The notes beneath the pieces were generated by a model. It had not been told where the DNA came from. It did no database searches and saw nothing but the letters and a program-made list of their open reading frames with translations. DNA of 27,836 nt from a virus, in IMG/VR virus record IMGVR_UViG_3300044630_002956, positions 1 to 27,836 of that record; one strand, written 5' to 3'. Below, in pieces: positions 11,355 through 22,894 of the stretch; position 1 is the stretch's first letter, and every line of letters starts with the position of its first letter. The position numbers and the translations under genes were made by a program.

Positions 11355-12926
11355 TTAAGGTTTGTAGAAAATAAAGATTGGTTCATATTTGTAAACCATA
11401 TCACCTATCTTCATACTATTTTTCACTCCACTCAAATCAACACCCGTCATCGGACTCATTGTCATTTTAATCTTACCCTTATATTCACATCCCAACTCTG
11501 TAAGAATATCAATTGAGTCCTGCTCCAATGGGAAAAACTTATCTTTACCCACTTTAATATCCGCAATATTCCAAAGAATGTATCTATCATTACGAAGATA
11601 TTCAAATGCAGTTGTTAGTGTAGGTCTTAAAAATCCATCCCTCCAACTATCGTAGTTATTGAATTTCTTAAATGATTGTGTTTCATCATTTGAGTATCTT
11701 TCTCTATCAAAGTATGGTGGAGATGTAAATGCAAAATCTAACTTACCCTTATACTTTTGAAAATTACCATCTAAATGAATTATCTCCGAACCTGTTGTAA
11801 AGATTTCATAAGTATTTTGATGTCCCCAAAAAGGATTACTTGCACCTGGAATCTTATTGTTAAAGAATTCTGCTAAATACTCATATCTCGTCTTACCAAT
11901 TTCAGGTATTTGATTTTCAGTATTAGGGTCATTACCAATGTAGTGAATGTTTCTATCATCTACTGATAATGCTCCTAAAATTCTACCACCCCAACCTGCC
12001 GATGGGTCATAAATGTTTATAACCTTTTGGTCTTTGATATGTTCTGTAAATCTCTGATATAGATACTTTGCAGTTAATGGTGGAAAGTTTACTACTGCCT
12101 GTGTTCCCATACCAATACGGAATGCCGCAGTTGCTTCTGGGAAGATAGTTTGACCAAACGGATATGTTTTAATCTGAATTGGTTGTTTTGGAATATCAAT
12201 TAGATTATCAATATTCTCACCCCAATCCGCAGTTTTAAGTGATGAAATATTCTCATATTTCAATATCCCTGCTTTATACAAATCCTTTACCTCTTGTGCA
12301 GTAATTGGTGGAGATGGTACTTTACTATCTGCCTGTGATAAACAAAACCCATGTCCTTGTTGTGTATCTCCCGCTGCCCATTTCTCAATCCATTCTTTAC
12401 CAGTTTGAATATGTGAGTTGTGGAAATCTGGATGATTTAAGTGTAGAGTTTTAGAAAAACGATACATACCATCCTGACGAGTTAAACGATTCATCTGTTT
12501 AATGAAATCAGGTAAGTACGCATCATCTACAAAAATATCGTAGATTGATGGTTTTGGTTTATCGTATGCAGAACCACCGATACCTGTTTTGTACATTGCA
12601 GGAAAGAATTGATTTACACAAGTGGCAAATTTGTTAAAGTTAAAAATAACTTCATCACCATCTTTGTCTACCTTACTAAACTCATTAACTTTGTATGTCT
12701 GCAGTTTAGAAAAGTTCTCAATAATTTCAGCTTCGTCCATACCAATTCTCGGTGGTGCATCCGTTCTGTTCCACTGCTCAATGGCAGTTTTACGAAAGAA
12801 ATCAACCCACTTACCAAACTCCGGAAAAGGCATCTTTAATACATCTTCGTATTTAAGATTTATTTCTGGAGAGTAAATCCAATCGTTTCTTTCGTAAAAA
12901 TACTTCTTTTTATAATTGAATGCCAT
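11355..12926 (-). CDS. SPPY-type DNA methyltransferase (long paralogue)
   Basis: A 523-residue protein. The C-terminal half is a SAM-dependent DNA methyltransferase: motif I is YDPSAGWGGR (306-315), the SAM acidic strand is HYIGNDP (328-334), and the catalytic motif IV is FTSPPYFDRERY (400-411). SPPY is usual for amino methyltransferases (N4-cytosine or N6-adenine). Residues 1-260 have no named domain and may recognise DNA. It shares with the 409-aa protein the DxSAGWGxR block and the SPPYF..ERYS.D.TQS block, so the two are paralogues. It lies between clamp and polymerase genes, so it is probably made with the replisome and modifies phage DNA during synthesis. Target sequence unknown. Confidence 0.8.
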   Translation of the reverse strand: MAFNYKKKYFYERNDWIYSPEINLKYEDVLKMPFPEFGKWVDFFRKTAIEQWNRTDAPPRIGMDEAEIIENFSKLQTYKVNEFSKVDKDGDEVIFNFNKFATCVNQFFPAMYKTGIGGSAYDKPKPSIYDIFVDDAYLPDFIKQMNRLTRQDGMYRFSKTLHLNHPDFHNSHIQTGKEWIEKWAAGDTQQGHGFCLSQADSKVPSPPITAQEVKDLYKAGILKYENISSLKTADWGENIDNLIDIPKQPIQIKTYPFGQTIFPEATAAFRIGMGTQAVVNFPPLTAKYLYQRFTEHIKDQKVINIYDPSAGWGGRILGALSVDDRNIHYIGNDPNTENQIPEIGKTRYEYLAEFFNNKIPGASNPFWGHQNTYEIFTTGSEIIHLDGNFQKYKGKLDFAFTSPPYFDRERYSNDETQSFKKFNNYDSWRDGFLRPTLTTAFEYLRNDRYILWNIADIKVGKDKFFPLEQDSIDILTELGCEYKGKIKMTMSPMTGVDLSGVKNSMKIGDMVYKYEPIFIFYKP

Positions 12927-12927
12927 T

Positions 12928-13647
12928 CTATGCGGTTAATTGTACTTCTACCAAGTAATAGTTTGCAGTGAAATCATCAATTTTGAATTCAACATGCGCT
13001 AAACCTGAAGTAGATATTTTTAATACTACCGAATTGGCTTCTTTGTTTGCAGAGAAAATCTCTTTGAGATACTTTGCAGAGAATGAAATAGGTTTAACTT
13101 CTTCCGTATAATCTTTGTTAACAGAAAATTCAATCAAAGTTGAATTTACATTCGAATAACCTAATACAAGTTTCAATTCACTATTCTTTGTAAGAACGGT
13201 AAATGTATCTACATCAGATAATGCGTTTTTAGCTTTGATAAATTTGTCAATAAATTTACCATCAAATGCAATTTCAATATCAAATTCTGGTAGAGATTTC
13301 AAATCCGGAACTGATGGGATAACTGCCAAATCCGCTAATTGGAATTGAGCCTTTGTATCATCACTTTTGATAAATAAACTTACGGCCTTTCCTTCAACTT
13401 GCTGAACATCCAATTCAACATCGTCACCTACAACTGATAACAATTTTGTTAATTGTGATGTTGTGTAAATACCTAAATTAGGTGTTGTTTGAGTAAAATT
13501 ATCTAATTGAATTTCACCTAATACTGTCTTATCATCGGAGATAAAACGAGTAACCAATTTGCCATCTGCTGCTTTCCATGCTACAGATTCTACTAATCCT
13601 GCCAAATTATACTTTTGGATAAATCTTGTAATTCTTGTTTTGTTCAT
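12928..13647 (-). CDS. gp45: sliding clamp (gp45-like)
   Basis: A 239-residue protein, close to T4 gp45 (228 aa), composed of two similar beta-rich halves as expected of trimeric clamps. The N-terminal part has FIQKYNLAGLVESVAW and the second half FSAKYLKEIFSANKE, which fits the second clamp domain. There is no signal peptide and no cysteine. Position beside polymerase and the clamp loader unit supports the call strongly. In T4 gp45 tethers the polymerase and also activates late transcription. Its own promoter lies upstream with a predicted leader near 18 nt. Confidence 0.88.
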   Translation of the reverse strand: MNKTRITRFIQKYNLAGLVESVAWKAADGKLVTRFISDDKTVLGEIQLDNFTQTTPNLGIYTTSQLTKLLSVVGDDVELDVQQVEGKAVSLFIKSDDTKAQFQLADLAVIPSVPDLKSLPEFDIEIAFDGKFIDKFIKAKNALSDVDTFTVLTKNSELKLVLGYSNVNSTLIEFSVNKDYTEEVKPISFSAKYLKEIFSANKEANSVVLKISTSGLAHVEFKIDDFTANYYLVEVQLTA

Positions 13648-13704: not shown

Positions 13705-14934
13705 CTATGGTTTTTTCCATATCCATACTGGTTCGCAAAATGTTTTGTTTTTTGCTTCTTCCGCTTTTAATAGAGCTTCTTCAGTGTATCTTTCCTCATC
13801 CCCTTCTATAATTGCACCTGCTCCTGCTGAACCTGGTCTCTTCGCCATTTCCATCCCCAAGCAACCCTCATATTCTCCACCTAACGAAGCGATATAATCG
13901 TTCATAGGATTTGTTATCTCTTGATATCCTTTACCATCTCCTTTGGAAGATGCGTATACATCGGCAATATTGATTGCTAAATACCCACCCTTTCTAATAG
14001 TCGGCCAAACCTTTTCAATTGTTTTGTGTAAGAATAGTTTATTCCACGCATCAATGTTGTTGTATCGAACCCAGCTTTGGGTATCGTCATAAGAATATCG
14101 TTCAACATTGAAATATGGGGGTGAGCTGAAAACAATGTCAAAATAATTGGTGTACTCACTATAATCCATGTCTTCAGCTGGTGAGCAATGGAATGTAGTT
14201 TTTTTATCGGTTTCAAACCATCCGTTGTGTTTTTTGTAAAATTCTGCTTGTTGTTCATAAATTGGGTGATTTTCTTTTCTCGGGTCAATACCCACATAAT
14301 GTTCTCCTTTTTCAGATGCCATAAATCCACACAATCTATCTCCCCACCCTGCTGATATATCTAATACATTTTTTGCATCAACCATATCATAAAGTGCTTT
14401 GGCAACATTGGGTTTGAATTGTGAGCAAATATACTTTCTTAAACTCAAACAAACTCGTAGTTCGTTTCTTCCTACTTCATCAAATTTTAAAGTATATAAT
14501 CCCCCCATTAGACTTGTCATAAAATCCTTACTACTCCAAGTTCTATGAGGACCTGGTGAAACGGTTCCATCTACACTCCATCTGTTTGATTGTTGAAAGT
14601 AATTAGATGCGGAGTTACCAGTATTCAACCTTCTTACGAATTGTTGTTTACCTCTGAATGTTAAAGGATACTTACTTTCGGATGCTTTACGCGGAAACCA
14701 TTGACCTTCGGTTAGGAGTTCGTGATACCGAGTTCCTTTGAGAGCAAGGTATTCCTTTCTAGCATCAGTTTCTGTTATTTCTGCGTATGGTAGTTCGTAT
14801 TCCATACACAATTGTGCAAGAGAATCTTTTACGTCATCTCTATCAAATGTGGTTTTAATATAACTCCACTCTTCACTATTGATGTGAAGATATGGAGTCA
14901 TATTTTTGAACTTATCAAAGTATTGTATATACAT
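13705..14934 (-). CDS. SPPY-type DNA methyltransferase (short paralogue)
   Basis: A 409-residue SAM-dependent DNA methyltransferase. Motif I is LDISAGWGDR (191-200), followed by HYVGIDPRKE (212-221), and motif IV is FSSPPYFNVERY (269-280). The C-terminal INIADVY strand matches INIADIK-like sequence in the 523-aa paralogue. The first 150 residues differ from the paralogue and may set a different target. The ATG overlaps the stop of the 600-residue GmrSD-like gene (TAATG), so the two are translated together. Amino methylation (N4-C or N6-A) is inferred from SPPY; specificity is unknown. Confidence 0.8.
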   Translation of the reverse strand: MYIQYFDKFKNMTPYLHINSEEWSYIKTTFDRDDVKDSLAQLCMEYELPYAEITETDARKEYLALKGTRYHELLTEGQWFPRKASESKYPLTFRGKQQFVRRLNTGNSASNYFQQSNRWSVDGTVSPGPHRTWSSKDFMTSLMGGLYTLKFDEVGRNELRVCLSLRKYICSQFKPNVAKALYDMVDAKNVLDISAGWGDRLCGFMASEKGEHYVGIDPRKENHPIYEQQAEFYKKHNGWFETDKKTTFHCSPAEDMDYSEYTNYFDIVFSSPPYFNVERYSYDDTQSWVRYNNIDAWNKLFLHKTIEKVWPTIRKGGYLAINIADVYASSKGDGKGYQEITNPMNDYIASLGGEYEGCLGMEMAKRPGSAGAGAIIEGDEERYTEEALLKAEEAKNKTFCEPVWIWKKP

Positions 14935-16736
14935 TAAACTAAAATTGGTTTACTTTTAAGATACTCACGTTTTTCTCTAACTTTTTGTCTTACAACTGAA
15001 TCTGGTTCATTTATAATTTCCAAATACTCACTCAATCGTAATACACTCATTCTTAAATTGTGATAAGAGCTCATTGCTCTACAATTTAATTCAAATTTAA
15101 ATTTATCACCTAAATTTTCAGATTTGAATGCTTCAACTCGCTCGATATCATTCATGCGAATTAATTCTGAATCTGAAATAATATGTCCACCAACTGGTTT
15201 TCCTTCAATTTCAGTATTATCCAAATCCAATCCTTTTTGTTTATTAAAAGAGTCAATAATAATTTCATTTGAAAACAATCTAGGAACTCTATTGGTTTTT
15301 TTACACAAACCAATAGTTAATCCGTATGATTCATTTGTAAGTGCATTGTATAAAAATTCTTTTTTAATATAGGAAAATGCATCTAAATAATCATTCTTAT
15401 TTGATGCTCCCATGCAAACACCAAATCTTGTTTTCGTTCCGGCATTATCATTTTTAGTACCGTCTGAATTTAATTCTGGATGAATTCTTTGAGTTTCAAT
15501 AAAGTTATACAATGTGTTTGCAAAAATATCAATATCACATATTACCATATTTTCGTTTTGAACCCATTTATAAATTTCTAAAAATTGTAAAATATATTGT
15601 CTTGATAATTTTGGATTTTCAATTTTAGAAAAAAGTTCATATAAAATATCAAATTTATTTAAAACAGATTCTTTTAAATCTTCATCAAATTTGTATTGAT
15701 ACCCAAATGTAGATTGAATTACATCTTTTAATTTACCATCGGTTGAATCTACAAATTTCCCATCTATTGTATATTGAGTTACTAAATGTGCAACCATAAA
15801 TGTTTCTAGACTAATCTTTTTTTCATCTGGATATAAGTTTAAAAATGGATGTAACTTGTAATCAGCTGCTTTAAATCTTTCCAATTTTATGGATGAAAAA
15901 GTTTTTAACCAACTAGTGGATTCATTTGTATCGGCATGTAATAATTGAGCAATTGTTTTGTTCTGCATCTTATTTAAAACCTTGTAAAAATGATGACAAT
16001 CTCTTGCAGAATACATTGGTAATATTCGTAAATTAAAAAGTCCTTCGTAGTATCTTTCTAAAACATCAACTTTTGTTACAAGTTCATTTGTTGTAGTATA
16101 TTTATTTGCCGTTTCTACAATATCGGAAATATACATATCATTTACCTCTATGTAATCAACAAATCCAGCTGATTCATCATTTGGGTCTAATGGTCTTTTT
16201 ATCTTATAACTTTTAAAAAATAACTTCTTATCAGACTTTAATTTAACCAAATCCAATGCCCCTCCAATAATTCCCCACAACCTATGTTCAATATCAGTTG
16301 CTTCAAATACAAGATTACCGTTTGGATATACAACCAAATTTACAACACCATCTCTTAACCAAAAAGAACCGTCATCATTTCCCCAATTATTTGCAAAATG
16401 TTCAGAAGCAGTTTGAACATTTGTTAGATTATAACTCTTTGGGTCTTGTCCTGTTGAAGGAGGTGAAATTATTCTACCCTCTTGGTAAAGTTTTACCAAA
16501 ACTTTTGCAGTAACTTTAACATCAATAAACCCCCATTGTGGGTTTGCAATCAAATTTGAACAATCTTTTTCACAAATGTCTCCTACAAATGTGTAAAATT
16601 GTTTCTTAATCTTTGTTTGGTGGTAATCAAATGTTTCAAGATATTTATTATAAACACCTTTTGTTAGCCACGATGGCGTTTCTGCTTGAATTAAGCGTGT
16701 AAGCTCCGCTTTACGGTCACTCTGTGATTTAATCAT
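14934..16736 (-). CDS. GmrSD/ParB-like protein with HNH-like C-terminus
   Basis: A 600-residue protein that I place tentatively in the DUF262 (ParB-like)/GmrSD type. Residues 131-160 run VVNLVVYPNGNLVFEATDIEHRLWG, where DIEHR (148-152) sits like the DGQ(Q/H)R motif of DUF262 and DGQHR proteins. Residues 300-460 look all-helical. The C-terminus has GKPVGGHIIS (512-521) and NCRAMSSYHNLRMS (551-564), giving candidate HNH residues H518, N551, H559 and N560, the layout of DUF1524 nucleases. GmrSD proteins are NTP-driven endonucleases that act on modified DNA. It is coupled by TAATG to a DNA methyltransferase and has its own promoter. Both motifs are degenerate, so a non-nuclease role is possible. 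Confidence 0.5.
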   Translation of the reverse strand: MIKSQSDRKAELTRLIQAETPSWLTKGVYNKYLETFDYHQTKIKKQFYTFVGDICEKDCSNLIANPQWGFIDVKVTAKVLVKLYQEGRIISPPSTGQDPKSYNLTNVQTASEHFANNWGNDDGSFWLRDGVVNLVVYPNGNLVFEATDIEHRLWGIIGGALDLVKLKSDKKLFFKSYKIKRPLDPNDESAGFVDYIEVNDMYISDIVETANKYTTTNELVTKVDVLERYYEGLFNLRILPMYSARDCHHFYKVLNKMQNKTIAQLLHADTNESTSWLKTFSSIKLERFKAADYKLHPFLNLYPDEKKISLETFMVAHLVTQYTIDGKFVDSTDGKLKDVIQSTFGYQYKFDEDLKESVLNKFDILYELFSKIENPKLSRQYILQFLEIYKWVQNENMVICDIDIFANTLYNFIETQRIHPELNSDGTKNDNAGTKTRFGVCMGASNKNDYLDAFSYIKKEFLYNALTNESYGLTIGLCKKTNRVPRLFSNEIIIDSFNKQKGLDLDNTEIEGKPVGGHIISDSELIRMNDIERVEAFKSENLGDKFKFELNCRAMSSYHNLRMSVLRLSEYLEIINEPDSVVRQKVREKREYLKSKPILV

Positions 16737-16802
16737 TTTTTATTATTTAAATTGTTTATAAGTTGGTCACTTAAAGGCTGACGCTGACTCCTGTTTTATT
16801 CT
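16737..16802 (-). promoter_or_regulatory. leader of the GmrSD-like gene with GC-rich tandem repeat
   Basis: Between the promoter and the ATG lies a leader of about 62 nt. In very AT-rich surroundings it holds a GC-rich patch, AGGAGTCAGCGTCAGCC on the minus strand, containing GTCAGC twice in tandem (16788-16777). AGGAG resembles a Shine-Dalgarno site but is about 50 nt from the ATG and cannot serve this start. It may be structured RNA or a protein site; no long stem is evident. Confidence 0.35.
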
Positions 16803-16835
16803 ACAATATACAAAAAATGCCTGGTATTTCCAAGC
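16803..16835 (-). promoter_or_regulatory. Bacteroidota-type promoter for the GmrSD-like/methyltransferase pair
   Basis: Minus strand CTTGGAAAT (TTG at 16833-16831) followed after exactly 20 nt by TATATTGT (TATATT at 16810-16805), preceded by TTG directly before the box. The CTTGGAAAT start is identical to that of the gp32 promoter. It drives the 600-residue gene and the coupled methyltransferase. Confidence 0.7.
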
Positions 16836-16847
16836 ACTTTCTTTTAT

Positions 16848-17612
16848 TTATTTTCCAACATTCCAAAATAAAGTATCTTCACTAATTGTTGCCATCTCTT
16901 GTATATGTTTCCATGCTTTTGAGTCATAAGTTAATGATGATGGAAATGGTGGTCTATCTTCCATTTTGCAATCTTTGTGGAACGGCATTCTTTTTGGTAT
17001 TGTGATTGCTCTACCTTGCTGAACGATTGATGTGTTGTGTCCAATTTGAACTCCATATACTTTTGCATCAGGCCATGCTAATTGTAAACCTCTACTTAAT
17101 GTACCAGAACTCATTACACTCCAAACTTCTTTTGGTGTAAATGGTAACTTTCTTGCCGTTTCTACGATTGTGTTTAGAATGATTGGGTCATCAAATCCGA
17201 ATGGAACTAATTTAATCTTATCCCATCCGTGTCCTTGTCTATCTTTTGCCTTTCGATTTAAGTTAGTTAGGTATCCCATAGGAACTTCGTTGATTTCTGC
17301 ACCCACCATTTCTGCTTCTAATGTAAGTTCGGTTCTTTTGCCTTGTGGAACATACACAATTGCTTTCTTTCCTAAATCTCTACAAGCGTATGCTAATGCA
17401 ACTTGTCCGTATCCTTGTCTGGGTGATGCGTAAATCCATTGTTCTACCTGTGGATACGCCAACATATATGAATATGCGAATCTGCGTTTACTACCGCCAG
17501 GTAAAAGGTCATCTCTTACAACCTTTATACCTGCGATAGTTTGAACTACGATAGGTGGTAAATTCACCTCATAGTTATATCTTTCTAAATGAAAATCTAA
17601 ATGTTTATACAT
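16848..17612 (-). CDS. small fold-type II PLP-dependent enzyme
   Basis: A 254-residue protein of the tryptophan synthase beta-like superfamily. The segment VRDDLLPGGSKRR (32-44) matches the lysine motif of ACC deaminase and D-cysteine desulfhydrase; K42 is the expected Schiff-base lysine. SSGTLSRG (168-175) is placed like the glycine-rich phosphate loop. Usual family members have about 330 residues, so this is a compact version. A TTG two codons upstream is in frame, but the ATG at 17612 is preferred because the promoter box ends 3 nt before it. Reaction unknown; amino acid beta- or gamma-elimination or replacement chemistry is usual. A role in making a base-modification precursor is speculative. 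Confidence 0.72.
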   Translation of the reverse strand: MYKHLDFHLERYNYEVNLPPIVVQTIAGIKVVRDDLLPGGSKRRFAYSYMLAYPQVEQWIYASPRQGYGQVALAYACRDLGKKAIVYVPQGKRTELTLEAEMVGAEINEVPMGYLTNLNRKAKDRQGHGWDKIKLVPFGFDDPIILNTIVETARKLPFTPKEVWSVMSSGTLSRGLQLAWPDAKVYGVQIGHNTSIVQQGRAITIPKRMPFHKDCKMEDRPPFPSSLTYDSKAWKHIQEMATISEDTLFWNVGK

Positions 17613-17613
17613 A

Positions 17614-17647
17614 ACCAAATTTACGAAAAAAAATCCAATAAAACAAG
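17614..17647 (-). promoter_or_regulatory. promoter of the PLP enzyme, predicted leaderless
   Basis: Minus strand CTTG (TTG at 17646-17644) followed after exactly 20 nt by TAAATTTG (17623-17616), a perfect TAnnTTTG -7 box. The ATG lies 11 nt after the first base of the box, about where transcription should begin, so the mRNA probably has no leader. Confidence 0.72.
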
Positions 17648-22588: not shown

Positions 22589-22894
22589 TTATTTAACTAC
22601 CATTAAAATTTCTGATTCTCTTAATAGAATATATTTGTTACCACCTACTTTGATTTCTTGTCCTTGATGGTACGGAGGGAGGATTACTTCATCACCTACT
22701 TCAACACTCATTGGAATTAATGTTCCACTCTGTGTGTAAATACCAGGTCCTACCGATTCTACTTTTGCTCTTTTTACATCTTCACTTCGTACTGAATCAG
22801 GTATAATAATACCACCTGCAGTTTGTGAAACTTCTGGTTCTAATTCTGTTAGAAGAACTCTATCTCCTAACGGTTTTACTAATTTGTTTGACAT
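22589..22894 (-). CDS. groES: GroES-type co-chaperonin
   Basis: A 101-residue Cpn10 protein. It begins VKPLGDRVLL, has the mobile loop SQTAGGIIIPDSV that contacts GroEL (24-36), and then GDEVILPPYHQGQEI and YILLRESEILMVV, the ordered strands of GroES. Length is the same as bacterial GroES (about 97). T4 uses the unrelated-looking gp31 with host GroEL to fold its capsid protein; this phage seems to carry a standard GroES for that role. It sits between the RNase H and the 70-aa gene, with four bases after the former. Confidence 0.93.
   Translation of the reverse strand: MSNKLVKPLGDRVLLTELEPEVSQTAGGIIIPDSVRSEDVKRAKVESVGPGIYTQSGTLIPMSVEVGDEVILPPYHQGQEIKVGGNKYILLRESEILMVVK

What the first reader, a model, noticed from the sequence alone, without database searches (positions are those of the whole stretch)
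14934..16736. GmrSD/ParB-HNH-like protein translationally coupled to a DNA methyltransferase
The 600-residue protein has a DIEHR motif where DUF262/DGQHR proteins have DGQ(Q/H)R, a helical middle, and C-terminal GGHIIS plus YHNLRMS that look like a DUF1524-type HNH nuclease. It shares a promoter (16805-16833) and a TAATG overlap with a SPPY methyltransferase. A modification-dependent or modification-blocked endonuclease paired with a methyltransferase inside a phage replication region would be a compact system for degrading host or rival DNA while sparing phage DNA. This role is inferred; the motifs are degenerate.
Basis: partly seen in the sequence, partly recalled or inferred. Interest (0 to 1): 0.7.

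Follow-up and report, generated by a model that had tools for sequence, protein, structure and literature searches.

The report
Mobile GmrSD-like nuclease gene in phages
This uncultured phage carries an unrecognised protein with the predicted shape of a bacterial DNA-cutting defence enzyme, and related phages swap very different versions of it at fixed genome positions, which suggests a weapon phages use on other DNA rather than a fixed partner of the methyltransferase beside it.

Summary
The ORF, motifs and TAATG overlap are real. No Pfam, NCBIfam, PHROG or PADLOC model recognises the 600-aa protein (P600). Degenerate-motif scans of IMG/VR found nine distinct relatives; none turned up in GenBank phages or GTDB genomes. 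With them AlphaFold2 gave pLDDT 86, and Foldseek's leading named viral hits are DUF262/GmrSD and HNH proteins (prob 1.00, E down to 8e-9): a ParB/sulfiredoxin-like N-terminal part plus an HNH-like C-terminus. H518, N551, H559 and N560 are invariant.

The dedicated pair with the 409-aa methyltransferase does not hold: that gene is core in 66 related contigs, none with adjacent P600, and P600 occurs elsewhere without it. P600 behaves as a mobile cassette: empty sites exist, it jumped between loci, and at one locus three alleles 32-49% identical sit between near-identical flanks. Several members lie beside DNA-modification genes (Mom, D12 or SPPY methyltransferases) or DruA.

Best reading: an exchangeable phage-encoded GmrSD-like nuclease that distinguishes DNA by modification, used against competing or host DNA. 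A homing-endonuclease-like role is the main rival. Activity and target are inferred, not shown.

The parts
14934..16736 (-). P600: GmrSD-like protein, ParB/Srx-like N-terminal part plus HNH-like C-terminal part, 600 aa
15837..16547 (-). ParB/sulfiredoxin-like (DUF262-like) domain, about residues 64-300 (limits approximate)
   Evidence: AF2 model and Foldseek hits to GmrSD_N, ParB, Noc, sulfiredoxin
16437..16451 (-). GQDPK motif (residues 96-100), at the place of the GmrS QR(P) motif
   Evidence: invariant in 10 of 10 members
16281..16295 (-). DIEHR motif (148-152), variant of DGQQR/DGQHR; E, H, R invariant, D or N at 148
   Evidence: compared with GmrS motif in PMC4619093
15972..15986 (-). YKVLN (251-255), equivalent of the DGQHR/GmrS FxxxN motif
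   Evidence: (Y/F)xxxN in 10 of 10 members
15174..15191 (-). GGHIIS (516-521), first HNH histidine H518
   Evidence: H518 invariant in 9 of 9 members with a C-terminus
15048..15086 (-). NCRAMSSYHNLRM (551-563), second half of the HNH motif, no zinc cysteines
   Evidence: N551, H559, N560 invariant in 9 of 9
16805..16839 (-). terminator hairpin overlapping a promoter-like site in front of P600
   Evidence: same element follows PLP in L008 before different cargo
14935..16818 (-). transferred cassette (leader + ORF): the only stretch shared with L001/L002 at this locus, 87.7% nt
13705..14934 (-). 409-aa SPPY-type methyltransferase MT409, core gene, start overlaps P600 stop
16848..17618 (-). PLP-dependent enzyme-like gene (PALP), upstream boundary of the insertion slot

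Best explanation
P600 is a phage-encoded, single-chain GmrSD-like nuclease. Its N-terminal ParB/sulfiredoxin-like domain, with variant motifs GQDPK, (D/N)xEHR and (Y/F)xxxN, binds an NTP and senses the state of DNA. Its C-terminal HNH-like domain nicks or cuts DNA that lacks, or carries, a given modification. The phage's own DNA is spared by whatever modification it makes (Mom-type acylation, N6A/N4C methylation). The gene is a transferable cassette that related phages exchange for very different alleles at fixed loci, as expected of a weapon against competing phages or host DNA. Shown here: ORF, conserved motifs, predicted fold, exchange, neighbourhoods. Inferred: NTP use, nuclease activity, modification discrimination, target.
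For: AF2 mean pLDDT 85.6 from 10 homologues. Foldseek viral hits: DUF262 protein E 8e-9, GmrSD_C, several GmrSD_N and HNH_5 proteins, prob 0.99-1.00. Weak but on-theme PDB order: DndI, SspE, Cas9 HNH, sulfiredoxin, ParB, Noc. GmrS motif set matched in kind. Modification genes nearby: Mom in L085, L092, L095, L098, D12 in L081, SPPY in window and L079; DruA in L094. Mom was found in 4 of 30 searched records, all four carrying P600. Allele replacement at site B: P600 32-49% aa identity against 89-100% for flanking genes, tree incongruent with locus. Purifying selection. Published parallel for phage Mom joined to nuclease domains: PMC7824862.
Against: No sequence-level match to DUF262, DUF1524 or HNH models. 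PDB fold matches are not significant (best E 0.16) and TM-scores are modest. The acidic residue before the HNH histidine and the zinc cysteines are missing. Site B members have no recognised modification gene beside them. The Mom association comes from one phage lineage, and the records searched were not a random sample.
Confidence: 0.5

Rival explanations
1. P600 is a homing-endonuclease-like selfish gene: its HNH cuts alleles lacking it and recombination spreads it, with the ParB-like domain serving as DNA-binding part.
For: Empty sites (PLP abutting MT409 in G028, L015, L016). Transfer as leader + ORF only. Several insertion sites, near NrdA, PolB and PCNA, the usual neighbourhoods of phage homing genes (PMC10448857).
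Against: Large protein with conserved NTPase-type motifs instead of usual homing DNA-binding repeats. At site B one allele is replaced by another rather than an empty site being filled. Beside modification genes in several lineages.
Confidence: 0.22
2. P600 and MT409 form a dedicated restriction-modification pair.
For: TAATG overlap in the window; adjacent again in L079 with the same PLP gene upstream; the P600 promoter would also drive MT409.
Against: MT409 conserved in 66 contigs, none with adjacent P600; other cargo in the slot; P600 in other contexts, and 40 kb away in G028.
Confidence: 0.1
3. P600 has lost nuclease function and is a ParB/DndB-like regulator or DNA-binding protein.
For: Degenerate HNH: no acidic residue before H518, no zinc cysteines; no sequence model recognises it.
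Against: H518, N551, H559, N560 invariant across very divergent members, which is expected of an active or structural site under selection.
Confidence: 0.13

Closest known systems
GmrSD / Eco94GmrSD / BrxU (type IV, DUF262 + DUF1524)
   Same: Two-part plan: ParB/Srx-fold N-terminal and HNH C-terminal domain in one chain of similar length (BrxU 587 aa, P600 600 aa)
   Different: No detectable sequence similarity; DGQQR replaced by (D/N)xEHR, QR by QDP, (E/D)H by GH; phage-encoded and mobile
SspE and DndI (phosphorothioate-sensing DUF262-HNH nickases)
   Same: Same domain order; DndI 9jfl and SspE 7drs are ranks 1 and 4 in the PDB fold search
   Different: Match not significant; SspE and DndI belong to bacterial phosphorothioate systems, and no dnd/ssp genes were noticed near P600
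Jumbo-phage Mom-REase modification/restriction genes (PMC7824862)
   Same: Phage DNA-modification gene associated with a nuclease predicted to attack rival or host DNA
   Different: There the nuclease is REase-fold and fused; here separate, GmrSD-like, and with varied modification neighbours
Phage homing endonucleases (HNH, T5orf172)
   Same: Free-standing nuclease-like genes inserted beside replication and RNR genes, with empty sites
   Different: Domain content and allele replacement differ

Membership tests
GmrSD (DUF262/DUF1524) | Match to Pfam GmrSD_N (PF03235) or GmrSD_C models | tested here: not met
   0 GmrSD families at E<=10 in 10 members; profile-profile against 7 BrxU-type proteins, prob 0.1%
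GmrSD (DUF262/DUF1524) | ParB/Srx fold N-terminus and HNH fold C-terminus | tested here: met
   predicted model pLDDT 85.6 and Foldseek viral hits prob 1.00; PDB hits not significant
GmrSD (DUF262/DUF1524) | (I/V)DGQQR motif | tested here: not met
   (D/N)(I/V/F)EHR instead; R invariant (motif from PMC4619093)
GmrSD (DUF262/DUF1524) | FxxxN motif | tested here: met
   (Y/F)xxxN255 in 10 of 10
GmrSD (DUF262/DUF1524) | GmrD (E/D)H ... NLxLLxxxN motifs | tested here: not met
   GH518 and N551-x8-N560; H and both N conserved but acidic residue absent and spacing one longer
GmrSD (DUF262/DUF1524) | NTP-stimulated cleavage of modified DNA | not testable with these tools
   needs purified protein
Restriction-modification pair with MT409 | Constant genetic partner | tested here: not met
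   66 MT409 contigs without adjacent P600, P600 in other contexts
Homing endonuclease | Empty cognate sites in relatives | tested here: met
   PLP directly abuts MT409 in G028, L015, L016
Homing endonuclease | Cleaves empty site and is inherited with bias | not testable with these tools
   needs assay and crosses
Known anti-phage defence systems (PADLOC) | Match to a PADLOC model | tested here: not met
   0 families in 10 members

The most novel reading that the evidence does not exclude
A previously unrecognised family of phage-encoded GmrSD-like nucleases that phages exchange as polymorphic weapon alleles at fixed loci, each used together with whichever DNA modification (Mom acylation, N6A/N4C methylation) the carrier phage makes: a modular phage-versus-phage restriction system.
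Probability: 0.33. Interest if true: 0.7.

Novelty: new variant of a known kind. Interest (0 to 1): 0.5.

Why it matters
GmrSD, BrxU and SspE are known as bacterial defences. A phage family of the same architecture, absent from current profile libraries and exchanged as divergent alleles inside near-identical neighbourhoods, would show phages using modification-sensing nucleases against one another. The allele swap also gives a direct test: alleles from sister phages should differ in which modified DNA they cut.

Tried and rejected
AF2 with three close homologues gave a useless model (pLDDT 36). tblastn of four members against GenBank phages found no relative. GTDB genome scans found none. An HMM of P600 and its two close relatives found no copy in 23 related phage records. 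The 756-aa protein in the same slot of L006 is not a detectable relative. Profile search of the C-terminal part against PDB sequences gave no HNH hit. A Bacteroidota-type promoter count in the window was not convincing (7 and 9 by strand, 3.4 expected, largest simulation 9), so the host is not called. I rejected the dedicated MT409 pair because MT409 is a core gene and the neighbours change. The E. coli record could not be searched with PF03235, so BrxU was taken from plasmid pEFER instead.

Full report
Observation. The window is a whole 27.8-kb IMG/VR virus record with its clear genes on the minus strand: a T4-like replication block (PolB, PCNA-like clamp, RFC-like loader, NrdA/B, helicase, FEN, RecA, SSB; names partly from sequence inspection). 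The ORF 14934-16736 encodes 600 aa and contains DIEHR (148-152), GGHIIS (516-521) and YHNLRMS (558-564). Its stop overlaps the ATG of the 409-aa SPPY methyltransferase MT409 as TAATG.

Search for relatives. No model in Pfam, PHROGs, NCBIfam or PADLOC recognises P600. The first scan of IMG/VR gave two 89% relatives. Degenerate patterns built on D(x)EHRLWG, NxRxMSxxHNLRM and GQDPx13HxxxxWG and a profile scan widened the family to ten distinct sequences including the window's, 35-89% identical to it. GenBank phages and GTDB genomes gave none.

Fold. With three sequences AF2 failed; with ten it reached mean pLDDT 85.6, pTM 0.73. Foldseek against predicted viral proteins put a DUF262 protein first (E 8e-9), followed by GmrSD_C, GmrSD_N, HNHc and HNH_5 proteins, mostly at prob 1.00. 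PDB matches were not significant, but the order was on theme: DndI, SspE, Cas9 HNH, sulfiredoxin, ParB, Noc. GmrS motifs named in PMC4619093 have counterparts: QR as GQDP, DGQQR as (D/N)xEHR, FxxxN as (Y/F)xxxN; H518, N551 and N560 stand for H-N-N. Profile comparison with BrxU-type proteins found nothing. So it has the architecture without sequence-level membership.

Methyltransferase link. MT409 has 66 relatives in IMG/VR, and P600 was found in none of those loci. Between thioredoxin/PLP and MT409 those phages carry AsnB-like plus GNAT genes, a 756-aa protein, a ParB-like 420-aa protein, or nothing. The order PLP-P600-MTase recurs only in L079 at 51% identity. In 120-kb record G028, P600 is at one end of the record and MT409 about 40 kb away, with PLP directly abutting MT409: the empty site.

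Mobility. Window and L001/L002 share only 16818-14935 at this locus (leader plus ORF, 87.7% nt), while their PDDEXK, GT2 and GT1 genes are 46-64% identical. At site B, between a 184-aa gene and the PDDEXK gene, three P600 alleles 32-49% identical sit between neighbours that are 89-100% identical, mostly above 92%. The tree places L086 (site B) inside the Mom-associated clade and L001 and L083 (site B) in the other clade, with strong support. P600 has lower G+C (28.6%) than PLP (36.7%) and MT409 (37.0%), and dN/dS to L001 is 0.13. A terminator hairpin overlapping the promoter-like site precedes P600, and the same element follows PLP in L008 before other cargo.

Neighbours. Mom family genes (PF25680, E below 1e-42) lie beside P600 in L085, L092, L095 and L098; DruA (PF14236) in L094; a D12 N6A methyltransferase lies about 1.2 kb upstream in L081. 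Of 30 records searched, Mom was found in four, all carrying P600, but these are one lineage and the records were not a random sample.

Interpretation. A phage-encoded GmrSD-like nuclease, exchanged as alleles and often near DNA-modification genes, fits a weapon that spares modified self DNA; jumbo-phage Mom-REase genes are a published parallel (PMC7824862). A homing-type selfish gene explains empty sites and placement near RNR and polymerase genes (PMC10448857) and stays the main rival. Nuclease activity, NTP use and the discriminating modification are inferred, not shown.

Limits. Most contigs are fragments, so absence in a record is not absence in a genome. The wider metagenome collection could not be scanned. 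The structure is a prediction, and no comparison with cellular AlphaFold models was available.

Noticed in passing
11355-12926: A second SPPY-type methyltransferase-like protein (523 aa) lies between PolB and the PCNA-like clamp, with local similarity to MT409 (about 30%).
   Followed up: partly
12928-13647: Sliding clamp matches archaeal/eukaryotic PCNA models (NCBIfam 8e-8, below its cut-off; Pfam PCNA_C below cut-off).
   Followed up: no
L008:2953-4792: In the slot before MT409 a relative carries a 162-aa protein and a 420-aa ParB-like protein (PHROG E 1.6e-10); by eye both may hold PD-(D/E)XK nuclease domains, untested.
   Followed up: partly
L006:3720-5990: A 756-aa orphan protein with an HNH-like VGHLEADSDGG stretch fills the same slot in three related contigs.
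   Followed up: partly
L007:3985-6010: AsnB-like amidotransferase plus GNAT acetyltransferase occupy the slot in about ten relatives; possibly a DNA or small-molecule modification pair.
   Followed up: partly
L094:704-1894: A DruA (Druantia) homologue (PF14236, E 2e-28) lies directly upstream of a P600 family gene in a phage contig.
   Followed up: partly
22589-22894: Looks like a GroES-type co-chaperonin inside the replication block.
   Followed up: no
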